Shown here: positions 2,901 through 21,347 of the stretch, piece after piece
Position numbering within the stretch: position 1 is the first letter of the stretch
Layout of the letters: every line of letters starts with the position of its first letter
Source of the DNA: Thermostichus vulcanus str. 'Rupite'
Lineage (GTDB): Bacteria; Cyanobacteriota; Cyanobacteriia; Thermostichales; Thermostichaceae
Assembly (NCBI RefSeq): GCF_022848905.1
Contig: NZ_JAFIRA010000010.1
Coordinates: 1-64,000 of the forward strand
Direction: 5' to 3'
Length of the DNA: 64,000 bases
The notes under the pieces: model-generated
What the model was told of the DNA's origin: nothing
What the model saw: the letters and a program-made list of their open reading frames with translations, nothing else
The model's database searches: none
Position numbers and translations under genes: made by a program

Positions 2901-2925
2901 GGCGTACCTCAAGAGCTAGGGTTCT

Positions 2926-3834
2926 TTAGAGCAACCGACCCAGGCGCTCCCGCAACTCAGCGGCGGCTTGTTCCAGATGAGCGGGAGTATGCCCCGTAGT
3001 CTCCACCATAACCGCCATGTGGGTGTCTGTACTCTCATGGAGGTGGATCCACAAAATATGCCGCCCATCAGGAGTTTTGCGAGGGCAGGACTTGAGACCA
3101 TTTTTGGGGGCAGCGTAGGCTTGGGGGTCGTACCTGACCCGATCTACCCAGAGAGTTTCTTGCAGCAGTTTTTCCACTTTGGGCCAGATACGTGGGCGAT
3201 GGTGGGCGGTATTGGCTTGCACTTGAATGACCTCAGAGCGTTGGCGACCAGAATCGGGCAAATCAACCCGGATCACCCGCTGCTGAGACTCTGTTTTGCC
3301 TGACAAGTAGGGCAGGTACACCAAGGCATCGTACTGCTCATGGATATAGCAGACTGGGATCCCCAATTCATTGCCCACCAGAGCCATGATCATGCTCTGG
3401 GCTTTGAACCCTCCTGTTGCTGCAAAAGTAACCATTCCTTTGGCCTGCTCAACCCAATGTTTCAAGAGGTGAGCCATGCGTTCCAAAGAAGACCTCTGTT
3501 CATTTGAGTCGTAGTTGAGCCCAGGGAGGGGTACCAAAGAAACATCCTGCTGCCCCAACTCCTGCTCAAAATAAAGCTTGAGGATCTGGGCACATTCCAA
3601 CCCACTAGGGGTGTCGGAGTGCAACAATATCAAAACGTCTTGAGGAGTGGGATCCAGTCGCCAATAGGTATTGGTTTCAGCGCTGATCCGTTCCAGCTCA
3701 GCACTTTTCATCCAAGCGAGTGCTCGCTGGGGATCCCCGATCCTGTTTTGCCCAAGCCAGGGACGCTTGTTGTCGGATTCTGTGTCACGGTTGGTGAGGA
3801 GAGAGGTGCCCACGGTCATCATAATGGTTTGCAT
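2926..3834 (-). CDS. CRISPR-associated CARF protein (TIGR02619/APE2256-like)
   Basis: 302 aa. The N-terminus MQTIMMTVGTSLLTNRD and the motif VTFAATGGFKAQSMIMAL (about residues 135-152), followed by GIPVCYIHEQYDALVYLPYL, match the CARF architecture of the TIGR02619 group. These proteins bind cyclic oligoadenylate; some relatives are ring nucleases and others are sensors joined to an effector. No HEPN R-X4-6-H motif is evident in the C-terminal third, so a ring nuclease or regulatory role is more likely than RNase activity; that is inference. ATG start at 3834, 15 bp after the TRAM-fusion gene. Confidence 0.75.
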   Translation of the reverse strand: MQTIMMTVGTSLLTNRDTESDNKRPWLGQNRIGDPQRALAWMKSAELERISAETNTYWRLDPTPQDVLILLHSDTPSGLECAQILKLYFEQELGQQDVSLVPLPGLNYDSNEQRSSLERMAHLLKHWVEQAKGMVTFAATGGFKAQSMIMALVGNELGIPVCYIHEQYDALVYLPYLSGKTESQQRVIRVDLPDSGRQRSEVIQVQANTAHHRPRIWPKVEKLLQETLWVDRVRYDPQAYAAPKNGLKSCPRKTPDGRHILWIHLHESTDTHMAVMVETTGHTPAHLEQAAAELRERLGRLL

Positions 3835-3849
3835 GGATTCTCCTAAGGG

Positions 3850-4524
3850 TTAGAGCAAGCTAATCCTACGGATCCCGCCATCGTCCTTCAGGTCTGTAAT
3901 CGCCACTTGCACCACCTGACCCACAGACAGGGATCCTGCTCTTTTGGGTTCTTTTTGGGTAAGTCGAATGGTACCCAAGATCTCGTAGGTAACCCTGTTG
4001 CCATTGATATTAGCGACAGTGGCATCCAGTTTTTGGCCAACTCGAAACTGGGTGTTATCCCGGACTTCCGCAATTTCGGCGAGCCGTTGGGCTTGTTCTT
4101 CTACGGGGCGCTCTGAATCACTATTGAGCTGGGATCCCGGTGGTGGGGGTATTTCTCCGAGGGGCATACCTCCGTCTTTGTAGTAGCGCATGAGTCGAGC
4201 GGCCCAGCCCAAGATCTGCAGCATCTGGGCAGGGTTGTCCTTCAAGGATTCTAAGTAGTCCTTACAGATTTCTTCAATAGAGCGATAGTACCCTTCGGTT
4301 TGTTTGGTGCGGTGCAGGCGACGTTCTCGAACCAGTTCACTCATGAATTTGAAAAAGCGGGATCCCGCATCCGGGTGATGGGCAACGGATCGCAGATAAG
4401 CAGTCACTTTGCTCAGCTCATTGACATCCGTATTCGCCTTCACCAAGGTCATGGCGATGCTGTGAGCCAGATCCCAAGATTGGGGGCTCAGATCAACGGA
4501 TTCCAGTAGAGGGGTGTTGGCCAT
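3850..4524 (-). CDS. Small-subunit-like helical protein fused to a TRAM/OB-like domain
   Basis: 224 aa, not assignable to a named Cas family by eye. Residues 1-130 are helical and end in ILGWAARLMRYYKDG, which aligns with YLGYGARYLKYKRDG at the end of the 145-aa operon protein at 8636-9073, suggesting both are Cas11-type small subunits. A proline-rich linker follows, and residues 160-224 (VGQKLDATVANINGNRVTYE and on to ISLL) look like a beta-barrel TRAM or OB RNA-binding domain. The start is ATG at 4524 in a TGATG overlap with the upstream RAMP gene, which makes it a core operon member. Confidence 0.55.
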   Translation of the reverse strand: MANTPLLESVDLSPQSWDLAHSIAMTLVKANTDVNELSKVTAYLRSVAHHPDAGSRFFKFMSELVRERRLHRTKQTEGYYRSIEEICKDYLESLKDNPAQMLQILGWAARLMRYYKDGGMPLGEIPPPPGSQLNSDSERPVEEQAQRLAEIAEVRDNTQFRVGQKLDATVANINGNRVTYEILGTIRLTQKEPKRAGSLSVGQVVQVAITDLKDDGGIRRISLL

Positions 4525-5594
4525 CAATACACTCCAGACGGGGGTTTACGTAGAGCGGTGGGGTTCAAGATGGAGGAAAGTTGCTTTAGTTGCCCAGGCA
4601 GAATGTAGCCTTGGGTGGCTTTGATCTGTTTCTGGATGAAGGCTTTTAGGGTTTCGCCCTCCAGGATGTCCGATGCTGGGGCAACATAACTGCTGTAGCG
4701 GTCTTTGAGGTTAGCAGGCCGCTCAATTTTATCAATGGTGATTTGAATGGAACCTAAGCCCACTGGTTTACCGCCGCCCAGTTTGAGCAGCATTGGATGA
4801 TTTGGATCCTGACCCAAAACGGTGAGTAGGGTGCCCAATTCGGCAGATGTGAGATTTTTGAAATGGATTTGGGTTTTGAACACAGTCTTTTTGGCAGCTT
4901 GTTGCGTGGGGGTGCCCCCATTTCCCGCATCCAACGCCTCAGTTTGAGCATAGTAAAACTTTCGCCCGGCAGCTTTACCATTTTGGAAATAGGCGCGACG
5001 CTGATCAGGACGAGGGCGATAGAGGGCAGGCAGGGATCCCCCGCTGGATCCGGCACTGACAGCGATGGCATCGCTGAACTCGACTAGACCTTGCCAGTCT
5101 AAGGCACCAAATACACGACTGGCGGGACAGAGTTGCTCTTTTTTGCGGCAGGGATGTCTATCTGGGGGGATCTGAGATCGATATTTGTTGGTGATAACGG
5201 CGAGGGTACTGTTGGTGATGGCCTCATACATGGCCCGAATTGCACCTTTGAGGGAACTTCCCTGGATTTTCAGCTTTTGATCCGGTGTGGTTGTCATCGT
5301 TTTCAGGAGTGGGATCCCGCGCACTCCCACATCACTCCCTAAGGCCAAGAAACCTGTAGAAACATGAACCGCGGTCTGCACCGTCAAGGTGAGAAAAAGG
5401 GTGCCATGTAACCTGTCAGCATGGAACTTAGCATGCCCGGCTGGCCTTTCCAGTTTGGGAGACTCTTTGGGAAACGGAATCAGTTCATAAGGTTTGGAGG
5501 AAACTGATTGGCTTCCCATATTTTGATTCTGATTCGGCTGGAGAGTTGTTGGATGGTGAGTTTGATGGGGAAGTCCTCTAGGGCCTCGGGTCAT
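4524..5594 (-). CDS. Type III RAMP protein, Cas7-like, with a Cys/His cluster
   Basis: 356 aa RAMP subunit of the effector backbone. The beta1 strand HGTLFLTLTVQTAVHVSTG is followed by the glycine-rich IQGSSLKGAIRAMYEA motif of Csm3/Cas7 proteins, and KLGGGKPVGLGSIQI near residue 275 is the second RAMP glycine loop. Between them, RHPCRKKEQLCPASRVFGAL holds a Cys/His cluster of the kind that forms the zinc-binding part of Csm3-like proteins. The long N-terminal tail is rich in Q, N and P. ATG at 5594 lies 2 bp after the preceding stop. Confidence 0.8.
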   Translation of the reverse strand: MTRGPRGLPHQTHHPTTLQPNQNQNMGSQSVSSKPYELIPFPKESPKLERPAGHAKFHADRLHGTLFLTLTVQTAVHVSTGFLALGSDVGVRGIPLLKTMTTTPDQKLKIQGSSLKGAIRAMYEAITNSTLAVITNKYRSQIPPDRHPCRKKEQLCPASRVFGALDWQGLVEFSDAIAVSAGSSGGSLPALYRPRPDQRRAYFQNGKAAGRKFYYAQTEALDAGNGGTPTQQAAKKTVFKTQIHFKNLTSAELGTLLTVLGQDPNHPMLLKLGGGKPVGLGSIQITIDKIERPANLKDRYSSYVAPASDILEGETLKAFIQKQIKATQGYILPGQLKQLSSILNPTALRKPPSGVY

Positions 5595-5596
5595 AG

Positions 5597-6046
5597 CTAC
5601 CTCGGAATCAGTGCAATAAAGTGAACACGAGCAGTGACTGAATCGATAAAATATCGTTGACCTATCTCCAGCGCTTTGGAATAGTCAAAAGATTTGGGAA
5701 AACGAGTTTCCTGGTTTTGTGGGTTACCATAGAGATCGGCTTCGTAATCTTCATACCGCCACTCGCCTGAAAGGGGGGTAAAGGATGCTGCTGGACTTTG
5801 GGTGCCCAAATAGAGTAAATCCAAACCTCTTACAGTCTGCTTCCATCTCAGCTCCGCCTGAAGCGCAAACACTTGACCTTCTTGACAGGTGAAGTCATGC
5901 GGGATCCCAGACTGAATGCCGCTGACTTGGTGAGGCCAGCGCAAAAAGAAGTAGGTCGTTTCTGTATTGGGAAAGTGATGGTGAAGGATCCCAGCAATCT
6001 CAGAAGTATCTTTGAGTTTCAGCGAAGCAACGAAAGCCTGTCTCAT
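5597..6046 (-). CDS. Unrecognised effector-operon protein, possibly Csx19-like
   Basis: 149 aa, starting at ATG 6046 in an ATGA overlap with the preceding RAMP gene. A middle segment reads EGQVFALQAELRWKQTV followed by GLDLLYLG. The ELRW pattern recalls Csx19 (TIGR03984), a small protein of type III-D loci, but I cannot confirm the match without an HMM search. No nuclease or metal-binding motif is seen. Being coupled between two RAMP genes argues for a structural or assembly role in the complex. Confidence 0.5.
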   Translation of the reverse strand: MRQAFVASLKLKDTSEIAGILHHHFPNTETTYFFLRWPHQVSGIQSGIPHDFTCQEGQVFALQAELRWKQTVRGLDLLYLGTQSPAASFTPLSGEWRYEDYEADLYGNPQNQETRFPKSFDYSKALEIGQRYFIDSVTARVHFIALIPR

Positions 6047-7008
6047 GATGCTTTGGCCCCCTCTTGAAGTAGCTTGGCCCATGCTTTCACTGCCGTTGCC
6101 AACAGATGTTCAACTTTTGCCTCAGTTGACTGATTCCAGGTGAGTTTGGCTCCAAAGCCCAAGGGCATCAGTTCAGCCCCAACAGGCACGGCTTCACGAT
6201 CAGGTTTGGGAAATCCATATTTCTTCGCCTCATCCGCAGTCAGAAACTCCCCTACCCCCAACAGGGATCCCTTGGGCCAAGAGAGATTGGATCCCATCAG
6301 CTTAAGGGTGTCCTCGACAAGGCAACCTGGATACTCCACAACTGCCGACTCATACTGAACCTGGACTGTGCCCATGCCTCGTGATTTGGCAAAACCAATG
6401 CCAAACCATCCTTCATTGAGATCTCGCAAGACTAGACCAATTAAACCCAATTGCGCCAGGGTAAAGTTTTTGAGGTGAATTTTGGTTTGAAAGGAGCCTT
6501 CCACACACACCTGGTAGTTAAATGGCCCCACTGCTACCGAGCCAAAAACCCGATCAATAGCAACACCGTTGCGTTCTTCAAGTCTAAGAGGAGCCCCTGG
6601 TTTGGGATAGGCATCTTCGATGCGGATGCGGCTGGCAAGGGCCGTATTGCCAAACATTTGATCAGTAAACGAAGACAGAGCATAGACTCGGTGGGATTCC
6701 TGGATCTTTTCCAGCCATTGATTGGCTTTTTGATCCAAGGGATCGCTGGCCCAAAGCTTGAACTTATCTCCTTCAGGCCGCTGATCACTGCCCACCGTTC
6801 TGACAATTCGTTCGGCATGGGCACGGATGGCTCCTTTGAGGGAGCTGCCAGGGAAATAAACGGTTCTGCCGCCCCGATGATAGGTTTCCACAAACTCCAT
6901 ATCGGGTTTGGTGGGATCCGCTCCTTCTTTACCTGATTTAATCAGGACAGGGCCATCGGGCTTAAGGGTGAGGGTGAGGGTGCAGTGGTTCACGTAACGT
7001 TTGTGCAT
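6043..7008 (-). CDS. Type III RAMP protein, Csm3/Cas7-like
   Basis: 321 aa. It shows the Cas7 pattern: beta1 CTLTLTLKPDGPVLIKSG, then VYFPGSSLKGAIRAHAERI (about residues 50-68), VYALSSFTDQMFGNTALASR, and the late loop GFAKSRGMGTVQV. Aspartates D31/D36 (ADPTKPD) lie just before the GSSLKG loop, where Csm3 carries the aspartate that cuts target RNA, so it is a candidate slicing subunit. ATG at 7008 is chosen because the hydrophobic extension from the upstream in-frame start has no Cas7 resemblance. Confidence 0.82.
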   Translation of the reverse strand: MHKRYVNHCTLTLTLKPDGPVLIKSGKEGADPTKPDMEFVETYHRGGRTVYFPGSSLKGAIRAHAERIVRTVGSDQRPEGDKFKLWASDPLDQKANQWLEKIQESHRVYALSSFTDQMFGNTALASRIRIEDAYPKPGAPLRLEERNGVAIDRVFGSVAVGPFNYQVCVEGSFQTKIHLKNFTLAQLGLIGLVLRDLNEGWFGIGFAKSRGMGTVQVQYESAVVEYPGCLVEDTLKLMGSNLSWPKGSLLGVGEFLTADEAKKYGFPKPDREAVPVGAELMPLGFGAKLTWNQSTEAKVEHLLATAVKAWAKLLQEGAKAS

Positions 7009-7033
7009 TGTTTGAAATCCTCGAATAAGGGAA

Positions 7034-7663
7034 TTAGGCAGGGATGAGAGTTTGCAGCTGAATAGTGCATTGAGAGAAAACAAAGTTAACAGCAGCAAAT
7101 AGTTCGTCTAGCTGCTGGATAGTGTAAAACTCTCTATTCAAGATAAATTGATTATCTCTTAATTTTCCAAACTGCCAGGTTACACCGTTAGAAGTAATAC
7201 CATAAATAATAATTCTTTTAATTCTTTCGTTGTCATTGAGACGCTGAGCAGCAATCATTTCAGAAATGCACTGCCCCCAAGCTTGGTCAAAGTTATCTTT
7301 TTTTGCTTCAACCAATAGCAAATAAGGTTTATCGAAAACAACTCGGCCTAATGGTGAGCGACGAGCCAAAATATATTCGGGGAAACCCTGTAGATCCTGA
7401 TCATATGCTAGATAGCGATGGCTCCAAAGAATAAAATGCTCTCGATAAGTTTTCCATACTTCCTTGAAGATAGGATAGATAATATTTTCGCAAATAGCAA
7501 ACTCTGAGCTGTCAACAGCTCCATCTTTCATAACAATCTCAAGATCCTGTCGAAAAAACTCTGGGATAGAGAACGGCAGCTCTTCAAGAAAAATTTCCTC
7601 TCGATAAAAGATCTGAGAGGCTTTAATTGTTTCACCTACTGTTTTATAGTTTGTAAAGGCCAT
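7034..7663 (-). CDS. PD-(D/E)XK-like protein inserted in the effector operon
   Basis: 209 aa, clearly more AT-rich than its neighbours and without the GGATCC palindromes that pepper them. The motif FDKPYLLLVEAKKDNFDQAWGQ contains the E-x-K core of PD-(D/E)XK nucleases, with an aspartate upstream and an aligned QxxxE-like helix downstream. Proteins of this kind in cyanobacteria are usually annotated hypothetical or as type I restriction-like. It sits between two RAMP genes with short gaps (14 and 25 bp) and no overlaps, unlike most of the operon, which suggests later insertion. Nuclease activity is inferred only. Confidence 0.65.
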   Translation of the reverse strand: MAFTNYKTVGETIKASQIFYREEIFLEELPFSIPEFFRQDLEIVMKDGAVDSSEFAICENIIYPIFKEVWKTYREHFILWSHRYLAYDQDLQGFPEYILARRSPLGRVVFDKPYLLLVEAKKDNFDQAWGQCISEMIAAQRLNDNERIKRIIIYGITSNGVTWQFGKLRDNQFILNREFYTIQQLDELFAAVNFVFSQCTIQLQTLIPA

Positions 7664-7677
7664 CGGGATCCCTCCTT

Positions 7678-8529
7678 TTATGCACCAATGCTGGTCGGTT
7701 GAAGCTGGGAGGTTGTTCTTAATTTAGTAATGAGTGCCTCGACCCAGTCTTGACGGTAAGCCTGTGCCGTTTCTGGCGAAAGCGGTTGTCGGGATCCGCG
7801 CACCAACTCTTGTAAATAGCGGAGAAGGCGTTGGGGATCCCCTTCGGAGTCAAACCAATAGGTTTCCAAAATATCCAGTTGGACGACCCCCAATCCCCGT
7901 GAGCGCCCGCCCCCCAAAGGAATCTGCTCTGTCTCAAATTGGTGTAAGCCAATGGTGAATAAACCCAGTTCCCATTCTTGGGCATTTTCTACCACGGCAT
8001 GAAACTCAAACGGTGTGTTGGCGGGTACCACCTGAAAATCATAGAGCTTGCCATCTGAGGCTGTTTCCGTATCTCGGTCAATCGCTACTCCATCCCGCTC
8101 TTGATATTGTCCAAACCAAGCGCTTGGCACCACAGGCAGATCGCGAATTTGCACCTTGCCCGCCAACCAAGGGGAGCCGAAAACTTGCGACACCAGATCC
8201 GTAACCCCCAAGAGAGCTTCCGTTAAGGCAGCATCGTTATTCTTGTGATTTTGTTTGAGGTCATTGATAATCCTAAATTGCTCAGAACTGGTTAACTCAC
8301 TGGGATCCTTAGCCAAGCTTGGATCAATTCCCCGCAAGAAACTTTCCAAACGGGAACGCATGGCACCCTTGAAGCTGGAGCCGGGAATGATCGGGCGACC
8401 GACTGCATCTTTGAGAACGGGTAAATCCGAGCCGATGGGTTCGGTAGAACGTCCCGCTCCAATTCTTAGGGCGGTCACTGTGGTGAGGATCCCGGTGATT
8501 TCAAGTCGGTTTTTGAAGATATCAAACAT
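7678..8529 (-). CDS. csx7: Type III RAMP protein Csx7/Csm3-like (SSO1426 family)
   Basis: 283 aa. The N-terminus follows the SSO1426/Csx7 pattern closely: FKNRLEITGILTTVTALRIG, then IGSDLPVLKDAVGRPIIPGSSFKGAMRSRLE. D35 lies where Csm3 has its catalytic aspartate, and GGGRSRGLGVVQLDI near residue 225 is the C-terminal glycine loop. It is expected to be a repeating Cas7 backbone subunit that spaces and cuts target RNA every 6 nt. ATG at 8529. A 106-bp gap separates it from the upstream small-subunit gene. Confidence 0.85.
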   Translation of the reverse strand: MFDIFKNRLEITGILTTVTALRIGAGRSTEPIGSDLPVLKDAVGRPIIPGSSFKGAMRSRLESFLRGIDPSLAKDPSELTSSEQFRIINDLKQNHKNNDAALTEALLGVTDLVSQVFGSPWLAGKVQIRDLPVVPSAWFGQYQERDGVAIDRDTETASDGKLYDFQVVPANTPFEFHAVVENAQEWELGLFTIGLHQFETEQIPLGGGRSRGLGVVQLDILETYWFDSEGDPQRLLRYLQELVRGSRQPLSPETAQAYRQDWVEALITKLRTTSQLQPTSIGA

Positions 8530-8635: not shown

Positions 8636-9073
8636 TTAGGATTCCCCGTCGCGCTTGTACTTGAGATAGCGGGCACCATAGCCGAGGTATCGACGGATCA
8701 AATCCATCTTAATCTCGTTGGTTTTGGGGGATCCCTTAGCCACTTCGGCTTCTTTGGCAATGTCAATGGCTTTTTGATGAATCCAATGATCAATATCTTT
8801 GATGATGGATTCAGCCAGAGAATTTTTCCCCTTCCCCCATTTGTTATCTCGACCGACTTGATAGCGAAGAAAGTTCTTGATGACCTCTGGACTATCTGTG
8901 GAGGTTGCAACATGGAGTAAATTGCGGTACTGAGATTCCTCTAGATTTTTGAGATCCCTAAAATTATCCAGAGCAGTTTGGATTCTGGTAACCAGCTCAT
9001 CTTCTGCTAAGCGGATCCCACGTTGAATCTTAAGCTCCTGCTCAGAACTAACCTTGTCAGTTGTGATTGTCAT
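8636..9073 (-). CDS. Small helical effector subunit (Cas11-like)
   Basis: 145 aa, mostly charged helices, starting at ATG 9073 in an ATGA overlap with the csx10-like gene. The C-terminal YLGYGARYLKYKRDG resembles the end of the helical domain of the 3850-4524 protein. Size, helical nature, and a position beside the Csx10-like RAMP fit the Cas11 (Csm2/Cmr5-type) small subunit that stabilises the crRNA-target duplex. No family can be named from sequence alone. Confidence 0.6.
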   Translation of the reverse strand: MTITTDKVSSEQELKIQRGIRLAEDELVTRIQTALDNFRDLKNLEESQYRNLLHVATSTDSPEVIKNFLRYQVGRDNKWGKGKNSLAESIIKDIDHWIHQKAIDIAKEAEVAKGSPKTNEIKMDLIRRYLGYGARYLKYKRDGES

Positions 9074-10287
9074 ACCGCATTCTCCCAAAAATGAAGATGA
9101 AACTCGCTGCACACTTCAACTTGACCAAATCCTTCGCTGGTACGCTCACCAACGCCGATCTGCTCTAAGTCAGTCAGTGCAGGGATCCAGCGATCCAACT
9201 GAGTGGTACTGAAAAGAAACACACTCCCTGGGCTGGTGACCAGATCCACATCTTTGAACAATCCCCATGCAGCATTCCAACCAGAAACATAGTCGTAACT
9301 GCTGAAGGCAAGCTCCAGACAGAGGGATCCATCCTCAATACCCGTCTCTTCCTGCAGCATGGCAGGGCTAAGAACGGTGGTTCGCTGCCAGTTGTCTCGT
9401 AGGATGGCGCCGGACTGTAGGCCGATAGCGAAATACTGCCGGTCGGAGGGTAGTTTTGCGGAAGCAAAAATTTGCCAAGCTTGCCATCGCTCTTGAAGTT
9501 TTTTGTTAAAGGTTGTGAGGCGTTGAGGCAGGGAGGAGGGGGTGGAGGATTGAGGTTTGGCTTCAATCCTGACCCGTCCCAAGCCGCGGGATACACTTCC
9601 ACCCAAGCGGAGCAGATGGGCATTGGCTTGGATATATCTGGTTAGGGTTTCCGCCAGTTTGGCATCCCTAAGATAAATCTTGCCGTTAAAGGTTGTGGCC
9701 CGAATCGGTTGCTCCTTTCTGGGTTGACCTTCATTCATCACCTCCAAGCTATAGAGGATTTGGTCGGCAGCGGTGGCGCGGCGCCGGTTGATGCCGACAC
9801 GGGTGAGAAGGCGTTTGCCGGTTGAAGCCATTTCATACTGGGATCCCTTGGGCTGGTAAAACCCTCGGTAAGGCTCGACCCGTCCCCCGGATCCATCTGG
9901 CTCAGTCGGGTCAAAGGGGATCCCCAGCTTGTGGGAGCAGAAGCGGTCGATGAGGGTGTCAAAGATGCCCGTCTTATCCTTGCCTGAATCTTTGAACCCC
10001 GGATCATTTTTGGAACTCAGAGCCGTAGCAGGCAGAACCTTACTTTGGGATCCTGGATAGGCGTTGGTAAAAACGGCGGGCTGAGCCGCTGTGAACAGGG
10101 CCGCAAAATCTCCCTCCAGAGGAGCATGGGGATTGGCTTGAGCTTGGCTCAGGATCAAACCGGCTATTGCTCCGCGAATGACACTGCCAGGGATGTAGTC
10201 CTGGGCTTCGCTGATGGCTCCCCCTGGTTTTTGGCGACCAATGGCAAGGGGAGATTCCGCCGTAAGGGTGAGTTGGATAGTTTCCAT
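9070..10287 (-). CDS. csx10: Type III RAMP protein Csx10-like (Cas5-type)
   Basis: 405 aa. The N-terminus METIQLTLTAESPLAIGRQ, then SEAQDYIPGSVIRGAIAGLIL, is the Csx10 pattern (dYIPGsviRGAlA). A second glycine-rich segment, LRLGGSVSRGLGRVRIEAK, occurs near residue 240, and the C-terminal ~150 aa form a further domain. Csx10 is the marker RAMP of subtype III-D and is thought to hold the crRNA 5-prime handle as Cas5 does. ATG at 10287 overlaps the preceding TGA as TGATG. The upstream in-frame starts would lie inside the neighbouring gene. Confidence 0.78.
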   Translation of the reverse strand: METIQLTLTAESPLAIGRQKPGGAISEAQDYIPGSVIRGAIAGLILSQAQANPHAPLEGDFAALFTAAQPAVFTNAYPGSQSKVLPATALSSKNDPGFKDSGKDKTGIFDTLIDRFCSHKLGIPFDPTEPDGSGGRVEPYRGFYQPKGSQYEMASTGKRLLTRVGINRRRATAADQILYSLEVMNEGQPRKEQPIRATTFNGKIYLRDAKLAETLTRYIQANAHLLRLGGSVSRGLGRVRIEAKPQSSTPSSLPQRLTTFNKKLQERWQAWQIFASAKLPSDRQYFAIGLQSGAILRDNWQRTTVLSPAMLQEETGIEDGSLCLELAFSSYDYVSGWNAAWGLFKDVDLVTSPGSVFLFSTTQLDRWIPALTDLEQIGVGERTSEGFGQVEVCSEFHLHFWENAV

Positions 10288-11012
10288 CAGACCCATCCTC
10301 CTTGACCCAGTTGCGCCCAATCTTGCTCGGTCGGTTGCAGCGGAACCAGCGATTGGGGATCCCAAGTGAGCCAACCCAACCCCGCAGATTTACTCCCTCC
10401 CAAGGCATGAATGTGATGGAGCGCTGCAAGGATGAGGGCTTTGCCCCAGGATGGACAATCCGGCAACAGGTGCAGGGATCCCGTGAATTTCAGGGCTGTT
10501 GCGGGAGAGGTCTCGATGAAATAGAGCCGTTGATCTTCGGCGGTTTGGCGGCGACGGTTGAGGGTCACCCCAGGGCGCAGAGCCTCCTCATAGCCCTCTG
10601 GAGAAAGATCACACACCAGGTCATCCACCCAAAGGCGAGAGGGTAGGGTGGGGTTGCCAAAGATTTGACAAACCCAACAATGGGATCCCTCATATCCCGC
10701 AACCCGGTACTCCTCGCGCTCAAAACGACCCGGGATCCCTTCCCGTTTGGGGCACATCAGGTTGGGATCCGGAGATTGGCAAATGGCCCAGCCCAGCCCC
10801 CGCGCTAATTTTTCACATTCATGACGCAACCGTCCTTTCAGTTGGGATCCTGGGATCAACAGTCGGCCAAAGGCATCTTTGACGATGGGTTTGTCCGCCA
10901 GGGAGCCACTGGAGCCACCGGATCCCACCGAAAGCGCAGAGGAAAGGGTGGCGGTGAGGGAGACAGAGGCTGTGGTACGGCCCTGAAGGGGTAATTCTGC
11001 CAGTCGAATCAT
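10287..11012 (-). CDS. Type III RAMP protein, Cas7-like, with four-Cys cluster
   Basis: 241 aa. Beta1 SVSLTATLSSALSVGSGG, then DKPIVKDAFGRLLIPGSQLKG with D40 placed like the catalytic aspartate of Csm3, and a late loop GGSKSAGLGWLTWDP. Between them, ICQSPDPNLMCPKRE and GSHCWVCQIFGNP supply two Cys pairs that could bind zinc. It directly follows cas10 with an ATGA overlap, so it is probably the Cas7 copy nearest Cas10 in the complex; that placement is inference. Confidence 0.8.
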   Translation of the reverse strand: MIRLAELPLQGRTTASVSLTATLSSALSVGSGGSSGSLADKPIVKDAFGRLLIPGSQLKGRLRHECEKLARGLGWAICQSPDPNLMCPKREGIPGRFEREEYRVAGYEGSHCWVCQIFGNPTLPSRLWVDDLVCDLSPEGYEEALRPGVTLNRRRQTAEDQRLYFIETSPATALKFTGSLHLLPDCPSWGKALILAALHHIHALGGSKSAGLGWLTWDPQSLVPLQPTEQDWAQLGQGGWV

Positions 11013-13366
11013 GCCTCTCCCTCCACGGCTGCTAGAGCACCGACTTTTTGATCAGCACCCTCTACCTGTACAAACCCATAGAGATCCACCAGGTCTTGCC
11101 AAATCGTCTCGTAGACACTGGATGAACCTTCGGATCCCAGGTGCATCCAGGGGGGGAGGTAGCCATCATTGGTTTTGGCTTTGCACCAGGTTTGTTCAAA
11201 CGCTTCCACGAGGGGCTTACCTTTGGATCCCAAGCGGGTGCGGAAATAGAGGTAGTTGAGGGTGGCAGTCCGTTTGCCTTTTTCCAAAAAGCTGCGCATT
11301 TGGTAAAGTTGTGAACGAGGGAATCCAGAAACTTTAAGGGCTTGTACAGTTTTCAATAAGCCGTGGACTTCCTGTACAGTATAGGGAGCAGCATAGAGCT
11401 GAAGGGTGTGATTTCCTTTGGAAATCTCTAGGGCTTGCTGACGAAACTCCTTGATGCTGGAGGCAATCATCGTCACTGACTTGAGAGTGAGAAAATCAAG
11501 AGTTGCAACAGAAGAATCTGAATGAGCAGGCTTGAGTTTTTTGGAGTAGGTCTTAGCGGATTTACACAGTTGATCAGTGAGTTTTTGAGCATAGTAAATC
11601 GGAGTGTCTTCAGATGCGATCAAAACACCTGCTGAGCTGGATAGCTGACACAGCTTGGCGGATTGAGAGTCAGACCCATATGGTTGATAGCGTTGTTTGA
11701 TTGTCCCAGGAGACTGGGCAGCATAATCTTTGGACTTAGAGAGCAGTATTTGCTCAAATTGTTCACAAAACGTTGTGGCAATATCAAGCGCTTTGTGAGC
11801 GGGAACGATAACAAATACATCATCCCCTCCCACAGTTAAAATCTCAAAAGGATGAATCCATCGTCCGTTGCGCTCCTTACCGGTTTCGGAATCCTGCTGT
11901 AGGCTATGGATTTGATGAGCTTGCAAATGCTGAGCCAAGGCATGATAAACGGCTTTTTCGGTTGCTTCTGAAACATCCTGGCTAAATCTTTGATAGGCTT
12001 CTGGGGTTTTGATTTGTTTTTGGATATAGCCTCCCATGTTGTTGCCATCAGCATAGATATAGGCAACAAAGCCCTGGCAGCCGCTACTTGCATTGGCAAT
12101 CTCTCGCAAGGACTGTGCCTCGCCAATGGTATCGTGAGGATGGGCTTTTTCTTCATGGATTTTATAGTAGAGATCTTGATAAAACCGACCTTCAGAAGAG
12201 TCCAAAAAACGTGCGAAACGACTCACCCAACTTTCCACAAAACCGGGATCCCATTCGGGAAACTTGCGAAACCATCCTTGCTTGCCAGTTTCCATCCTTT
12301 TGGCTTGACGACCGACCAGGGCTTTGCGGGCAGTGGCTTCCGAAAGCCAAGGCTCACCGGGTAGCTCAGCTTTGGCAATGGCAGAACGACGGTCGGTGCT
12401 ATCCCGACGGATATAGGGATGGGTCTCAAAGAAGGCAGGATGGGCGCGGCTGGGGCGGTTAGGATCCGGGTTGCCGTTGCGGCGGTGGTTAAACTGGGCA
12501 GCCAGATGACCGACCAATTCGTTGAAATTTTTCCGGCTTTCAAACTCTTTTTGGCTTGCATTTTTGCCGTAATAGGCTTGCACCAGAGGATTGCTGTTGT
12601 TACGGGTGAGCCAATCCAGCCAGGGGGTCTCCTCAATCGGATCCCGCAGCAACCCGTAGCGCAACTCCAGTAACCGAAAGGTGGATCCCACAGCGCAGGC
12701 GTTGGCGGTGAGGGTTTCTTGGGTGTAGCGGCGCTCAATGGCATCGGCGAGATCATTGACCCAGGCTGCCGGACAAAAAGCAAGGATATTGCCACCGGTG
12801 GAATAAATGATCAGCTCCGGGATCAGGGCTGAGGCTAACCCCGGATAGTGTTGCTCGAGCCAAGCGTGGATCCCATGCTTCGGCTCAGGATCCTTCACAA
12901 ACCTTTTGAGGGCAGAACGACTGGTTTCATCCAAATCGGCCCAGCCTGCGTAGGTATCTTCGGGATCCCCAAAAAAGGCGGGTAAATCGATCAGGTTAAT
13001 GCGATCCAGAAGGGCGGAAGCGCCGCGGATCTCCGGTAGCTTGGCGGACTCGAAGACATACCCCTTGATCTTGGTGGCCCCACCGTACACCAGACCGATG
13101 CGGGTAGTCTGTTGCCAAACCTCTGGATAAAGAGCCTGAAGCTCCGCCGGTGTTTCTGGGAACTTACTGGGGTTTTGCTGCAACTGCTGGATCTGCTGAA
13201 CAAGGGCGGCTGATTCGGGCGGGATCCCGGACTGATCTCCAGAGCGCAGAGCCGTGAGCATTTGTTGCAGGCTGGCAGGGTTCTGGGAGGGAGCCTTGGT
13301 TTCCCCCCAAGCCAAGCACCAGCTTAAAGCAGTGGCGATCCGAGCAGTTGAGTTGGCGGTACTCAT
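11009..13366 (-). CDS. cas10: CRISPR type III Cas10 (Cmr2-like)
   Basis: 785 aa large subunit. The second palm domain carries the cyclase motif GGDD at residues 513-516 (within ILTVGGDDVFVIV), which makes cyclic oligoadenylate from ATP when target RNA is bound. The N-terminal part has the Cmr2-type stretch TKIKGYVFESAKLPEIRGAS near residue 135. No HD dyad of the DNase domain is visible near the N-terminus, as is usual in III-D. The ATG at 13366 is preferred over the in-frame TTG at 13453, which would add a 29-aa extension. It is the first gene of the minus-strand effector operon. Confidence 0.92.
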   Translation of the reverse strand: MSTANSTARIATALSWCLAWGETKAPSQNPASLQQMLTALRSGDQSGIPPESAALVQQIQQLQQNPSKFPETPAELQALYPEVWQQTTRIGLVYGGATKIKGYVFESAKLPEIRGASALLDRINLIDLPAFFGDPEDTYAGWADLDETSRSALKRFVKDPEPKHGIHAWLEQHYPGLASALIPELIIYSTGGNILAFCPAAWVNDLADAIERRYTQETLTANACAVGSTFRLLELRYGLLRDPIEETPWLDWLTRNNSNPLVQAYYGKNASQKEFESRKNFNELVGHLAAQFNHRRNGNPDPNRPSRAHPAFFETHPYIRRDSTDRRSAIAKAELPGEPWLSEATARKALVGRQAKRMETGKQGWFRKFPEWDPGFVESWVSRFARFLDSSEGRFYQDLYYKIHEEKAHPHDTIGEAQSLREIANASSGCQGFVAYIYADGNNMGGYIQKQIKTPEAYQRFSQDVSEATEKAVYHALAQHLQAHQIHSLQQDSETGKERNGRWIHPFEILTVGGDDVFVIVPAHKALDIATTFCEQFEQILLSKSKDYAAQSPGTIKQRYQPYGSDSQSAKLCQLSSSAGVLIASEDTPIYYAQKLTDQLCKSAKTYSKKLKPAHSDSSVATLDFLTLKSVTMIASSIKEFRQQALEISKGNHTLQLYAAPYTVQEVHGLLKTVQALKVSGFPRSQLYQMRSFLEKGKRTATLNYLYFRTRLGSKGKPLVEAFEQTWCKAKTNDGYLPPWMHLGSEGSSSVYETIWQDLVDLYGFVQVEGADQKVGALAAVEGEA

Positions 13367-13874
13367 GTTCTGTGCCTGGCAAGTTTCCTGAGGTGGGTCA
13401 AGGATTCTATGGATTGGGATAGCTTGGATGCGAAGGGCTACCTTACCGCTCAAGCTACTTTGGGCTTGCTTTTGAAAAAAATGAAAATAAGCCAGTCTCC
13501 TTTATCTTGAGTTCGATTCAGTGTCCAGCAGGCCGACCCTGTTTCAGAGAGTCAGCGACAGTTTTTTTCGACTATACACGAGTTCTGAGGCAGCCTACAG
13601 TCTCTGTTGCATAGAAGTTGATCCTTTATGAACTATAACAGGGGAAAAGCTGTAACCTGGCTTTCCACCTGCTGTACTGGAATCATTTTCTGAGTAGCAA
13701 AGTAACATAGACTGCCCATAATCGATTGGATTACAATTCAAGATTTTCTTTAGGTTGTTGTTCTCCCTTGGTCTTTTTAAGGGTAGGTTCTACTGGAAGG
13801 GATCCCTTCCAATTTCTTCTTGAAGGGGTGTACTGGCGAGATGGGCTAGGTTCTGAGAGGGTTAGGGGTTGGCC
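13367..13874. promoter_or_regulatory. Divergent intergenic region between cas10 and cas6
   Basis: About 500 bases without a credible gene, separating the leftward effector operon from rightward cas6, so both promoters should lie here. It is relatively AT-rich in its middle part. It contains the perfect 16-bp palindrome GGAAGGGATCCCTTCC at 13795-13810, an extended form of the resident GGGATCCC repeat. I cannot place -10/-35 boxes with confidence. Confidence 0.5.
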
Positions 13875-15049: not shown

Positions 15050-18000
15050 GTTTCCGTCCCCTTGCGGGGAAAAGGTAGGGATTAACCACAGTCCCCGATA
15101 TGTGGCGGCGTATCGAGGGATTTTGTTTCCGTCCCCTTGCGGGGAAAAGGTAGGGATCAACGCAAGCGGCAGAGAAACTGCATCCCAACCCGGAAGGCTT
15201 GTTTCCGTCCCCTTGCGGGGAAAAGGTAGGGATCAACACAGATCTGCGGCCAGCCGCCTGTTAGGATGCCAACCCCAAGTTTCCGTCCCCTTGCGGGGAA
15301 AAGGTAGGGATCAACTGCCATGAATGGCGCTAATGGGGGACTTCCTGGCAACAAGTTGCGTTTCCGTCCCCTTGCGGGGAAAAGGTAGGGATCAACGCAG
15401 CCATCTGCAGATCGGTGCCCAAGTCTTCGCTCCTCAGTTTCCGTCCCCTTGCGGGGAAAAGGTAGGGATCAACCGGGAGATCTAGGTTACGGAAGCCTTC
15501 ACGGCTGCCCTTGGGAGTTTCCGTCCCCTTGCGGGGAAAAGGTAGGGATCAACTCCGTAATTCTACTAACCCGCTAATCAATAAAGCATAGTTTCCGTCC
15601 CCTTGCGGGGAAAAGGTAGGGATCAACGCTACGGCCGGGTATTCCCGGGCTGATGAGGAAACCTTTGTTTCCGTCCCCTTGCGGGGAAAAGGTAGGGATC
15701 AACCCTTGAATAAGCCTAATTCTTCAGGGAGGTTTTCCCCTTGTTTCCGTCCCCTTGCGGGGAAAAGGTAGGGATCAACATGGCTATATTCCGGGTCGCG
15801 CGATTTGGACCGATCATCGTTTCCGTCCCCTTGCGGGGAAAAGGTAGGGATCAACTTGAAACCCGTCGGGTTGCGCCGTGACTGTCATTCCCAGCGTTTC
15901 CGTCCCCTTGCGGGGAAAAGGTAGGGATCAACAAAGCCAAGCCAAAATCACTAAATATCTCGTAGATTGGGGAGTTTCCGTCCCCTTGCGGGGAAAAGGT
16001 AGGGATCAACTCTGGGGCAGGTTGCCAAGCGAGACCTAGGAAGGTACGTTTCCGTCCCCTTGCGGGGAAAAGGTAGGGATCAACGGCGAGAATATCCAGC
16101 TCACCCCTGAGCAGTTGGGGTTTCCGTCCCCTTGCGGGGAAAAGGTAGGGATCAACCTGCATTGGCTAAGGCCAAAAATATGCTCAAGCAGTCAGGTTTC
16201 CGTCCCCTTGCGGGGAAAAGGTAGGGATCAACGATTTTTCAAGTTTTGTCTACCAAGAAATAACTTATTGTTTCCGTCCCCTTGCGGGGAAAAGGTAGGG
16301 ATCAACTATTAGTCTCTGAACTCCGCAAAGCCCAACGGGCTGAGCGAGTTTCCGTCCCCTTGCGGGGAAAAGGTAGGGATCAACGGCTGGCTCCACCAGC
16401 CTACACAGGATCTAACCACCGCGGATCGTTTCCGTCCCCTTGCGGGGAAAAGGTAGGGATCAACGCTAAACAGCTTTGGGTCATCTCTCGGGCGTATCTA
16501 GTTTCCGTCCCCTTGCGGGGAAAAGGTAGGGATCAACTCGGACCAAAGTAAAGCAAGAAAACGAGGAAAACCTGAATGTTTCCGTCCCCTTGCGGGGAAA
16601 AGGTAGGGATCAACCATTGAGCGGGAGGAAAGCCAGAGCACAGTCCCTGTGCGTTTCCGTCCCCTTGCGGGGAAAAGGTAGGGATCAACGCTATGAGGCC
16701 GTCGGACTCGGTGTCAAAGCCATTGTCACGTTTCCGTCCCCTTGCGGGGAAAAGGTAGGGATCAACCACGTAACCGATGGAAACCGGTTTGTCCGTACCA
16801 TCTAGGGTTTCCGTCCCCTTGCGGGGAAAAGGTAGGGATCAACCCCAGGCGTCTTGCACGTTGATTTAGCAGATCCTGATTTGGTTTCCGTCCCCTTGCG
16901 GGGAAAAGGTAGGGATCAACAGAAGCACAGTTTGATTTGTTTAATACACGAGATGCAATTAAGTTTCCGTCCCCTTGCGGGGAAAAGGTAGGGATCAACG
17001 GTGTTATTCACTGAGATAGGCCCCGAGGGCCCATCCCAGTTTCCGTCCCCTTGCGGGGAAAAGGTAGGGATCAACTGGGGTTGTCGTTGGCCCCACACAT
17101 GAATTTAAACGTTTCCGTCCCCTTGCGGGGAAAAGGTAGGGATCAACCCAATATTGGCACGTGGGGTGACGAACCCCTTAAGGCGGGGCTAGAAGTTTCC
17201 GTCCCCTTGCGGGGAAAAGGTAGGGATCAACGAAGGCGGTTAAAGTCGCCAAAGCGGGGCTGAATGCCGTTTCCGTCCCCTTGCGGGGAAAAGGTAGGGA
17301 TCAACAAGATGACAACAACACAGGAAGTAATCAACCTGTTAAAAGTTTCCGTCCCCTTGCGGGGAAAAGGTAGGGATCAACATCAGTAAAAGCCTATGCT
17401 CATGTACCTACACAACAATCTAGTTTCCGTCCCCTTGCGGGGAAAAGGTAGGGATCAACGTAGGTGGGAATGTAAGAGGGAAAAGGGGTATGAAAATGTT
17501 TCCGTCCCCTTGCGGGGAAAAGGTAGGGATCAACGGCGGGGTACGGCCTGCTTCCTTGAGGTGCGCCTGCTGAGGTTTCCGTCCCCTTGCGGGGAAAAGG
17601 TAGGGATCAACAAGCTCACGACTAAGCCCACGGCTAAGCTCACGACTAAGTTTCCGTCCCCTTGCGGGGAAAAGGTAGGGATCAACTTGCGGCTGCCGTG
17701 GAGAAGCTCCAGGTCAACAAGCTGAGTTTCCGTCCCCTTGCGGGGAAAAGGTAGGGATCAACAACCGGCCACAAAGCCGACTACGAAACCGACCACAAGT
17801 TTCCGTCCCCTTGCGGGGAAAAGGTAGGGATCAACGTTGGGGTCGTAACCTCTACTGCGTCAACAGTAGGGGGTTTCCGTCCCCTTGCGGGGAAAAGGTA
17901 GGGATCAACCAACGCTGCTGCCAAACGACTTGCCCATGTTGCCTCTGCTGGTTTCCGTCCCCTTGCGGGGAAAAGGTAGGGATCAACCTCCGGTGCCAAA

Positions 18001-19595
18001 ATCTGGGACGCCGCCCCAATTAGAGAGTTTCCGTCCCCTTGCGGGGAAAAGGTAGGGATCAACCGCGTAGACTGCGGCTGCCGGTAGTGGCTACCGCAGT
18101 GTTTCCGTCCCCTTGCGGGGAAAAGGTAGGGATCAACGCTGAACGCTGAGAAGGCTGCCAAAACCGCTAAAGCGGGGTTTCCGTCCCCTTGCGGGGAAAA
18201 GGTAGGGATCAACAGGCTGTTCTTGGCTTCCGCCAAAGCAGCCTTGGCCGCTTCTGTTTCCGTCCCCTTGCGGGGAAAAGGTAGGGATCAACCCAGATAA
18301 TCCCTGTATTGTATTCACAGAGGTTTCTAACAGTTTCCGTCCCCTTGCGGGGAAAAGGTAGGGATCAACACCCAACCGCCCACTGCACTAATTTGGCGGG
18401 TAGCAACCCGTTTCCGTCCCCTTGCGGGGAAAAGGTAGGGATCAACAGTTATTGCAGAAATCCGCTAACCTGCGCAAGCAGGTGAAGTTTCCGTCCCCTT
18501 GCGGGGAAAAGGTAGGGATCAACCAGTCTGGGCACAGCCTGATCACAGTCCAGGTACAGTTATTAGTTTCCGTCCCCTTGCGGGGAAAAGGTAGGGATCA
18601 ACGAATTCAACGTGTTCCTCTAGGCGAGGGCGCGTTCGGGCGTTTCCGTCCCCTTGCGGGGAAAAGGTAGGGATCAACACCTGGGCAACGTCATGGTTCA
18701 CAGTGACGGAGTCACCGTGTTTCCGTCCCCTTGCGGGGAAAAGGTAGGGATCAACTTCATAATATTCTATACAACTTGAACACTAAAAGTCCCGTAGTTT
18801 CCGTCCCCTTGCGGGGAAAAGGTAGGGATCAACATGGAGCCCAACATCGACGGGTACCTAAACCTGAACGAGCTGTTTCCGTCCCCTTGCGGGGAAAAGG
18901 TAGGGATCAACAGAGCCTCCGGAAGGCAGCCAACCTGCGCAAGCAGGGTTTCCGTCCCCTTGCGGGGAAAAGGTAGGGATCAACACAAACAACATGATAC
19001 AGCACATCCAAACGATGTTAGGTTTCCGTCCCCTTGCGGGGAAAAGGTAGGGATCAACAGCTGGACTGTATGTCCGGCTATGTCGCCTTACTGTGGCGTT
19101 TCCGTCCCCTTGCGGGGAAAAGGTAGGGATCAACCGCTTTATCTCTACTTCATTGCGCTCACTAAGGTTGCACATGGGTTTCCGTCCCCTTGCGGGGAAA
19201 AGGTAGGGATCAACATGTAAAGGACTTCCTAGACCTGTGTGCGGCATGGGGAGCAATGTTTCCGTCCCCTTGCGGGGAAAAGGTAGGGATCAACAAGCAG
19301 GGCTAAATGCCCCGCTAGAAGCGGCTAAGGTCGGTTTCCGTCCCCTTGCGGGGAAAAGGTAGGGATCAACACGAAAATAGGCAGTTGGATAACCTGGGAT
19401 TCATATTCCCGGTTTCCGTCCCCTTGCGGGGAAAAGGTAGGGATCAACGCCCGTTTGGGTCCCACCTCAAAAGGTGGAAAGACGTTTCCGTCCCCTTGCG
19501 GGGAAAAGGTAGGGATCAACGTCGATGTTGGGCTCCATCGACAGTTGCACACCCAAGTGTTTCCGTCCCCTTGCGGGGAAAAGGTAGGGATCAAC
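15050..19595 (-). CRISPR. CRISPR array, 60 repeats of 37 bp, 59 spacers
   Basis: The 37-bp repeat reads GTTTCCGTCCCCTTGCGGGG followed by AAAAGGTAGGGATCAAC on the plus strand. I counted 60 copies with starts spaced 72-84 bp, giving 59 spacers of about 35-47 bp. Only the leftmost copy is visibly altered (GGGATTAAC in place of GGGATCAAC). On the minus strand the CCCC-GCAA-GGGG hairpin is followed by exactly 8 nt, ACGGAAAC, the form of a Cas6-generated 5-prime handle. The altered repeat at the left and cas2-cas1 at the right agree with leftward transcription and a leader right of 19595. Some spacers are related to each other (see findings). Confidence 0.97.
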
Positions 19596-19858
19596 CCTAC
19601 CTCTGGAAAAGCTTGAATTCATGAGGTTTTCAAGGTGCAATTGCGAGGCACCACGGAGGTTCTGAGATACGAAAGTTAACTTTGCTTCCATGGATTAGCC
19701 CCAAAGGTGGAAATTGCTTTCCTTGGTTCATTATTCCATAGTTTCTCATGGATTTAGTCGTGGCATGTGAATTTCTTCTTGAAATCTTCGCCCGAAGAGT
19801 CAAGGCTTTTAGTGCCTAACTGCGACAAATCCGGCACAAAACTTCACACTTTGCCCCG
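19596..19858 (-). promoter_or_regulatory. Probable CRISPR leader and array promoter region
   Basis: This 263-bp AT-rich stretch lies between the last perfect repeat and the end of cas2 and contains no gene. It is the expected leader if the array is transcribed leftward, because newest spacers enter next to the leader and cas1-cas2 adjoins it. Read on the minus strand, the TATGGAATAAT near 19724-19734 could serve as a -10 region; this is a weak guess. Confidence 0.6.
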
Positions 19859-20137
19859 TCAGAAGATCACGTAATCGGGAGGTTCATAGGGAGGAGGCCC
19901 ACCAAAAACCTTGGTCCGTTCCTTGGCAGTGGCATCTAGGGGATAAGCCCGCAAGCTGTCTTCCTCCAGGTTTAGCAATGGCAACCACAAGCGTTCCAAC
20001 TTTCCCTCCAGATCGGCAGTTTGCAACGGGCACTCAAACACAGAATATTGCACCCGTTGGCAGTATTGCTCCAACCGCTTAGCCAGCTTTTGTCGGCGCT
20101 TATCGTCGACTACGTCGTAACAAACCAACCACAGCAT
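19859..20137 (-). CDS. cas2: CRISPR-associated endonuclease Cas2
   Basis: 92 aa. The N-terminus MLWLVCYDVVDDKRRQKLAK has the ferredoxin-like first strand with the conserved Asp (D8), and RVQYSVFECPL is the usual second half of the fold. Cas2 dimers bridge two Cas1 dimers in the spacer-integration complex. The ATG at 20137 overlaps the cas1 TAA as TAATG, so cas1 and cas2 are coupled. Longer in-frame starts would run through cas1 and are rejected. Confidence 0.95.
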   Translation of the reverse strand: MLWLVCYDVVDDKRRQKLAKRLEQYCQRVQYSVFECPLQTADLEGKLERLWLPLLNLEEDSLRAYPLDATAKERTKVFGGPPPYEPPDYVIF

Positions 20138-21147
20138 TAGCGCAGCCCCATTGCTTCGTAATCCAGATCGCCACTGATTAGGCAACGGCTTAACCAGCGG
20201 GCTTGCTCCAGCACAATTTGACTCAGAGCTAAGCGGCGAGATTGAGGTGGATAGAACAACGGCTCCCGGAAGCGCCGTTCTAACTCCCCTAAGAACAGCT
20301 TCTTGGCTAGGGATCCCAGCCATATTCCCGTTCCATCCGGTGAGGGTTCAAAATCTTCTGGAGTGAGCAACTCCGCTTTGATCACCTGGATAACTGCCCA
20401 ATCCACCACCAGGGGTCGGAATTCCTCCATCATGTCCAGAACCAAGTTGGGACGATAGGGCAGATTGGCATGGAAAAAGCCGAGATAGGGATCCAACCCA
20501 GCCATCACCACTGCTGAGAAAACCCGTGCCAGCAATACTCCATAGCCCCAACTGAGGAGTGCATTAATGGGGTCGAGGGGAGGCTGTCGGTTACGGCCAG
20601 TGAACTTCCAGGCAGGGGGAAAGTAATGGCGCAAGGATTGGTAATAGGTGCGGGCACAAATGCCCTCAAGTCCCATCAATGTTTCCCGTTCTAAGGGCGG
20701 TACAGAGCGATCCAACTGCTGAAGGTAGGCAGCAATTACATCAATCCCCTCCTGCAAGGGGGCAATTCGGCCACGGGTAGCACGGTTGCGCAGTTGCAGA
20801 ATCGCCCGTTGGTTACGAATTTTGCCCCGGACGATTTTGCAAGCCCACTCCAACCCCCAAGGGGAATGAATCCTCTGGTATTGGGCCAGCCGAAGCTCCG
20901 GATAGGTGGAAAATGGCCCCTGCAAGCGCCCACGAAAGCTGCCATCAGCCCGCAGGAAAATGGTTTCAATACCCCGATCCAGTAACTCTGCCAAGGCCCC
21001 ACTGCTCACTTGGATCCCGGGCAGGATCACCACCAGCTCGATCTCAGAGAGCCGACAAAGCCGTTCTTGGTTACGCCAACGGATGAGCAGAGCCTGGTTT
21101 CGGCACTGGACAACCGTTCCAGGCTCCGTTAGGTAGAGGGTGGTCAT
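20137..21147 (-). CDS. cas1: CRISPR-associated integrase Cas1
   Basis: 336 aa, the normal length for Cas1. The metal-binding active site residues are visible: E161 in LMGLEGICARTYY, H226 in LGFFHANLPYR and E241/E242 in LDMMEEFRPLVVDW. It integrates spacers at the leader-proximal repeat with Cas2. The start is ATG 21147 (MTTLYLTEPG). It stands alone: there is no reverse transcriptase or Cas4 fusion, and no adjoining cas4. It serves the array at 15050-19595. Confidence 0.96.
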   Translation of the reverse strand: MTTLYLTEPGTVVQCRNQALLIRWRNQERLCRLSEIELVVILPGIQVSSGALAELLDRGIETIFLRADGSFRGRLQGPFSTYPELRLAQYQRIHSPWGLEWACKIVRGKIRNQRAILQLRNRATRGRIAPLQEGIDVIAAYLQQLDRSVPPLERETLMGLEGICARTYYQSLRHYFPPAWKFTGRNRQPPLDPINALLSWGYGVLLARVFSAVVMAGLDPYLGFFHANLPYRPNLVLDMMEEFRPLVVDWAVIQVIKAELLTPEDFEPSPDGTGIWLGSLAKKLFLGELERRFREPLFYPPQSRRLALSQIVLEQARWLSRCLISGDLDYEAMGLR

Positions 21148-21347
21148 GGGGGGGAGTCGGCTCCTTTCCAAGCGGTTACAGGCTTGGCTTAGGGTTGCTT
21201 TTCCAGCAAACCTGCAATTGGAAGTCCCCTCTTCTTACATCCGTTGCCTCCGTTGAACAGTCTCCTGCCGGGATCGCGAGGGCTTGAGCAATCCGGTAGC
21301 CTAGCCTATGGCTCTGGAACTAAGGTCTGAGTTTTTTCTGAAGTTGC

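What the first reader, a model, noticed from the sequence alone, without database searches (positions are those of the whole stretch)
18834..19558. Two spacers from overlapping positions on opposite strands of one target
The first 18 nt of spacer 18834-18874 (ATGGAGCCCAACATCGAC) are the exact complement of the first 18 nt of spacer 19521-19558 (GTCGATGTTGGGCTCCAT). Joined, they give a 61-nt stretch of one invader gene with an open frame reading MEPNIDGYLNLNEL after LGVQLS. The same spot was therefore sampled twice, once per strand. For an RNA-targeting system only one orientation would match the mRNA, so spacer choice seems not to be strand selective, or both strands are transcribed.
Basis: seen in the sequence. 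Interest (0 to 1): 0.72.

Follow-up and report, generated by a model that had tools for sequence, protein, structure and literature searches.

The report
Opposite-strand overlapping CRISPR spacer pair
A hot-spring cyanobacterium stored the same short piece of an unknown invader gene twice in its immune memory, once from each DNA strand; this is what type III CRISPR systems are already known to do, with a modest hint that stem-loop-forming pieces are stored more often than expected.

Summary
Spacers 18834-18874 and 19521-19558 share 18 nt as exact reverse complements, flush with both spacer starts (about 1e-7 such overlaps expected by chance). They lie in a 60-repeat type III-D array of a thermophilic cyanobacterium closely related to Synechococcus JA-3-3Ab and JA-2-3B'a. 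Because the leader and cas1-cas2 lie on the right and the transcribed repeat ends GGAAAC, crRNAs come from the minus strand. The older spacer (tenth from the leader) then yields a crRNA antisense to the inferred mRNA, so it should work; the newest, leader-proximal spacer yields a sense crRNA, so it should not. This fits published type III behaviour: acquisition from both strands, then selection for mRNA-complementary spacers. Nine of nine other orientable spacers point the functional way. No target was found in any collection searched, so contiguity in one genome is inferred. The genome has no detectable reverse transcriptase, so RNA capture is unlikely. By-product: spacers here are enriched in stem-loops (41% with stems of 5 bp or more, versus 14% in the same genome's III-B array and 22% in sampled phage DNA), echoing a laboratory-described hairpin preference of type III adaptation.

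The parts
15050..19595 (-). CRISPR array, 60 repeats of 37 nt, 59 spacers; inferred transcription on the minus strand (leader right)
   Evidence: left-most repeat 15050-15086 degenerate (GATTAAC); Rfam CRISPR-DR57
18834..18874 (+). spacer 49 (10th from leader): mRNA-sense on + strand, so its crRNA is antisense to the inferred mRNA
19521..19558 (-). spacer 58 (leader-proximal, newest): opposite orientation, crRNA in mRNA sense
18834..18851 (+). 18-nt overlap shared with the reverse complement of 19521-19538; loop, right arm and part of left arm of a stem-loop
   Evidence: stem seen
19596..19858 (-). leader region; the ~55 nt next to the array are conserved with relative G001
19859..20137 (-). 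cas2
   Evidence: PF09827 and TIGR01573, residues 63-154 of the ORF
20137..21171 (-). cas1, no reverse-transcriptase domain
   Evidence: PF01867 and TIGR00287
13869..14999 (+). cas6 with C-terminal HTH
   Evidence: PF10040, PADLOC Cas6 and HTH
11009..13453 (-). cas10 with GGDD motif
   Evidence: PADLOC Cas10; GGDD found
9070..10374 (-). csx10 (Cas5 of III-D)
   Evidence: PADLOC PDLC01024 E=7e-143
4524..8529 (-). Csm3-like Cas7 genes at 4524-5594, 6043-7098 and 7678-8529 (a fourth at 10287-11012) plus a PD-(D/E)xK protein at 7034-7663
1030..3834 (-). Csx1 (CARF-HEPN, 1030-2373) and a CARF7 protein (2926-3834)
18447..18486 (+). spacer 44, shares AACCTGCGCAAGCAGG and the peptide (K)xANLRKQ with spacer 50 (18912-18947), same strand

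Best explanation
The two spacers were taken, in two separate events, from overlapping positions and opposite strands of one invader gene by the RT-free Cas1-Cas2 module of a type III-D system. Acquisition captures double-stranded or hairpin DNA and inserts it in either orientation. Only spacers whose crRNA (transcribed from the minus strand) is complementary to mRNA protect, so selection later enriches those. Spacer 49 is such a retained functional spacer; spacer 58, the newest, is a fresh insertion in the non-productive orientation. The shared spot is a small stem-loop, which type III adaptation is reported to favour. Shown: the overlap, signs of array polarity, absence of a detectable RT, best coding frame, stem-loop excess. 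Inferred: one contiguous target, order of events, non-function of spacer 58.
For: Exact flush 18-nt overlap. Codon model favours spacer 49 sense by 8.2 for the joined 61 nt, with the best frames of both spacers falling on one frame. Array polarity: degenerate repeat at left, cas2-cas1 at right, conserved right flank. III-D gene content. No RVT_1 in the 99.99% complete genome. III-D spacers 44, 50, 55, 56 here and 29, 41 (G001) and 5, 16, 17 (G005) in relatives all read in the plus sense by homologous translated partners. Literature: RT-less type III in Thermus takes spacers from both strands and strand bias arises by selection; an opposite-strand spacer does not protect (PMC7515739).
Against: No protospacer was found in 2.9 million viral contigs by exact or codon-degenerate patterns, in phage records, plasmids (hits there are repeat-like) or 390 class genomes. 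Contiguity and coding sense are therefore model-based. The coding model classifies only 77% of test 39-mers correctly, and its array-wide estimate does not exclude 50:50. crRNA direction was not measured.
Confidence: 0.8

Rival explanations
1. Type III priming: interference by the older spacer 49 generated DNA ends at its own target, and Cas1-Cas2 captured the adjacent opposite-strand piece as spacer 58.
For: The newest spacer overlaps the protospacer of an older, apparently functional one. Whether type III priming exists is listed as an open question (PMC9048733).
Against: One overlap among 59 spacers needs no special cause: with a target pool of 50-100 kb, 1-2 overlapping pairs are expected. 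No cluster of further new spacers around the spot was found.
Confidence: 0.07
2. The target carries the 18 nt twice as a long inverted repeat, and both spacers came from the same strand at two places.
For: The overlap spans an inverted repeat (GTCGATG...CATCGAC), and stem-loops are common in this array.
Against: The best coding frames of the two spacers join into one open frame. The 18-mer itself is not palindromic.
Confidence: 0.07
3. Spacers come from RNA or from both strands of an RNA virus through a reverse transcriptase.
For: RNA capture would explain stem-loop-rich spacers and both orientations; RT-linked type III systems are known.
Against: Cas1 has no RT domain and no RVT_1 match exists in the genome. 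The published hairpin preference occurs in RT-free systems (PMC9048733).
Confidence: 0.03
4. Chance 18-nt identity between unrelated spacers.
For: None beyond the short length of the match.
Against: About 1e-7 expected; maximum 13 in 200 shuffled sets.
Confidence: 0.01

Closest known systems
RT-less type III spacer acquisition in Thermus thermophilus (Artamonova 2020, PMC7515739)
   Same: Cas1-Cas2 without RT; unselected spacers come from both strands; protective ones are mRNA-complementary
   Different: Subtype and host differ; here the evidence is a natural array with an unknown target, not infection sequencing
Hairpin-preferring type III-A adaptation (Zhang 2021 and Aviram 2022 as summarised in PMC9048733)
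   Same: Excess of stem-loop sequences among spacers in a type III array
   Different: III-D in a cyanobacterium, natural spacers, modest effect, and seen in only some arrays
Synechococcus OS-A / OS-B' 'Type I' repeat CRISPRs (Heidelberg 2009, PMC2612747)
   Same: Same 37-nt repeat; relatives G001 and G005 carry it at the coordinates listed there
   Different: Different species, longer array, different spacers; a text search of that paper for 'strand' and 'hairpin' found nothing

Membership tests
CRISPR-Cas type III-D | Cas10 large subunit | tested here: met
   11009-13453, PADLOC Cas10 E=3e-62, GGDD at residue ~541
CRISPR-Cas type III-D | Csx10-type Cas5 | tested here: met
   9070-10374, E=7e-143 to Csx10 model
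CRISPR-Cas type III-D | several Csm3-like Cas7 subunits | tested here: met
   four ORFs match Csm3 / Cas7 III-D models
CRISPR-Cas type III-D | array with adjacent Cas6, Cas1, Cas2 | tested here: met
RT-Cas1 type III systems | reverse transcriptase fused to or near Cas1 | tested here: not met
   no RVT_1 hit in the genome; Cas1 domain only
strand-unselective type III acquisition | spacers from both strands of one target | tested here: inconclusive
   one opposite-strand pair, target genome not found
strand-unselective type III acquisition | enrichment of mRNA-complementary spacers after selection | tested here: inconclusive
   9 of 9 homologous-partner spacers in the functional sense; model 0.66, CI 0.47-0.83
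hairpin-preferring type III adaptation | stem-loop enrichment over shuffles and over phage DNA | tested here: inconclusive
   window array met (z 5.3; 41% vs 22% in phage DNA, p=0.001); G005 III-D not significant; G000 III-B absent; G005 'Type II' repeat arrays exceed shuffles (z 4.8) but not phage DNA
hairpin-preferring type III adaptation | preference lies in acquisition, not in the invader's sequence | not testable with these tools
   needs the target genomes, which were not found

The most novel reading that the evidence does not exclude
The III-D adaptation module of these hot-spring cyanobacteria selects DNA stem-loops, so opposite-strand pairs such as 49/58 mark hairpin hot spots; natural arrays then carry a readable signature of hairpin-directed acquisition, which I did not find reported for III-D.
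Probability: 0.3. Interest if true: 0.55.

Novelty: new member of a known kind. Interest (0 to 1): 0.33.

Why it matters
As a single pair it only illustrates that type III memory can hold both orientations of one site, including a probably useless one at the newest position. The wider stem-loop excess, if it holds in more III-D arrays with known targets, would show that a preference measured in laboratory type III-A systems also shapes arrays in nature, and would give a target-free way to detect that preference.

Tried and rejected
Self-targeting or prophage source: none in the genome or in 59 relatives beyond weak 20-32-nt matches. Virus source: eight viral-contig scans with the 18-mer, codon-degenerate peptides of 49/58 and other recurrent spacer motifs, all empty; phages, plasmids and 390 class genomes gave nothing usable. 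RNA source via RT: rejected, no RT found. Stem-loop excess as exclusive to III-D: rejected, because G005 'Type II' repeat arrays also exceed shuffles (z 4.8) and phage DNA itself has a mild excess. Position bias of the stem within the spacer: not significant (KS p=0.16). Twelve-nt reverse matches among III-B spacers are internal, not flush with spacer ends, and look like chance. A genome-collection scan with Cas1 for more arrays of this kind gave only two further close relatives.

Full report
Observation. The array at 15050-19595 has 60 copies of a 37-nt repeat and 59 spacers. Their first 18 nt are exact reverse complements. It is the longest match of either orientation between any two spacers, against 8-13 in 200 shuffled sets, and about 1.3e-7 flush overlaps of that length are expected by chance. 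The joined sequence is 61 nt.

System. The locus is type III-D: Cas10 with GGDD, Csx10, four Csm3-like Cas7, Csx1 and a CARF7 protein, Cas6 with an HTH tail, Cas1 and Cas2, plus Csx3 and TIGR03985 genes nearby. The same genome carries a III-B and a I-C locus with their own arrays. No reverse transcriptase family match exists in the genome. Relatives in the genus carry the identical repeat. Two of them have the array coordinates published for Synechococcus OS-A and OS-B' (JA-3-3Ab and JA-2-3B'a).

Direction. The left-most repeat is degenerate, cas2-cas1 are on the right, and the first ~55 nt of the right flank are conserved in a relative that also has cas1-cas2 on that side. The repeat read on the minus strand ends GACGGAAAC, resembling the usual 5' handle (own knowledge). 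So crRNAs are taken to be minus-strand and spacer 58 the newest. This step is inferred, not measured.

Which spacer fits the mRNA. Four of six frames of the joined sequence are open. The model is right for 77% of test 39-mers, so this is good but not conclusive. Under it, the crRNA of spacer 49 is antisense to the mRNA and that of spacer 58 is sense.

The rest of the array. Spacers that have homologous partners by translation show their own reading direction through synonymous changes, for example RQLDNLGFIFP/KKLDNLGFIFP, IRETGWE, SENQDPKGESLRV/SEGADPQGESPRI and LQKSANLRKQ/LRKAANLRKQ. Nine III-D spacers in three genomes all read in the plus sense, that is, with an mRNA-antisense crRNA (pairs scoring 40 or more). 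With 49 and 58 the count is 10 to 1 (p=0.012), although that pair was chosen because it disagrees. The codon-model estimate for this array is 0.66 (0.47-0.83).

Comparison with experiment. In Thermus, an RT-less type III system takes spacers from both strands when unselected, protective spacers are strand biased by selection, and a spacer against the opposite strand gave no protection (PMC7515739). A freshly inserted non-productive spacer 58 next to retained productive ones fits this without any new mechanism. Overlap by itself is also unremarkable: 59 spacers from a 50-100 kb target pool should give 1-2 overlapping pairs.

Stem-loops. The overlap spans GTCGATG-GAGCCCAA-CATCGAC, and other recurrent or overlapping spacers also sit on stem-loops (44/50 on CCTGC-GCAA-GCAGG; adjacent spacers in relative L045 on AAGGAGTGCCT-ACCTC-AGGCACTCCTT). 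Across the array the mean longest stem is 4.29 against 3.70 in dinucleotide shuffles (z 5.3), and 41% of spacers have stems of 5 bp or more. Relatives' III-D arrays give z 4.2 and 1.4. The III-B array of the same genome gives 0.2 and I-C 0.8, host DNA -0.5. Sampled phage DNA has a mild excess of its own (20-23% with 5 bp or more), which the window array still exceeds (p=0.001). The 'Type II' repeat arrays of G005 also exceed shuffles (z 4.8) but not phage DNA. A preference of type III adaptation for ssDNA hairpins has been described in III-A systems (PMC9048733; the primary paper was not held). The natural-array signal here agrees with it, but invader composition is not excluded.

Limits. No target sequence was found anywhere searched, so contiguity, gene identity and mRNA direction are inferred. 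The stem-loop test was prompted by the data of one array; G001 and G005 serve as partial replication, G001 positive and G005 not significant.

Noticed in passing
L042:12891-14889 (relative G001): The III-D cas1 of this relative is split by an inserted ORF of about 410 aa that looks by eye like a TnpB-type transposon protein, so its own adaptation may be off.
   Followed up: partly
L045 spacers 8/9 (array 6062-7247): Two adjacent spacers overlap by 13 nt on the same strand and together form a terminator-like stem-loop.
   Followed up: partly
window 19371-19411 and L050 III-B spacer 27: A III-D and a III-B spacer of the same genome target homologous sequence encoding LDNLGFIFP, so both systems met related invaders.
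   Followed up: partly
L042/L043/L045 spacers with GGCGAAAGCC: Three spacers from two genomes hit the same conserved coding stem-loop (D-P-x-G-E-S-x-R); two start at the same position.
   Followed up: partly
window 21348-22790: 480-aa TIGR03985 CRISPR-associated protein of unknown role next to cas1.
   Followed up: no
window 22925-23962: Csx3 ring-nuclease domain within a 345-aa protein, longer than the domain alone.
   Followed up: no
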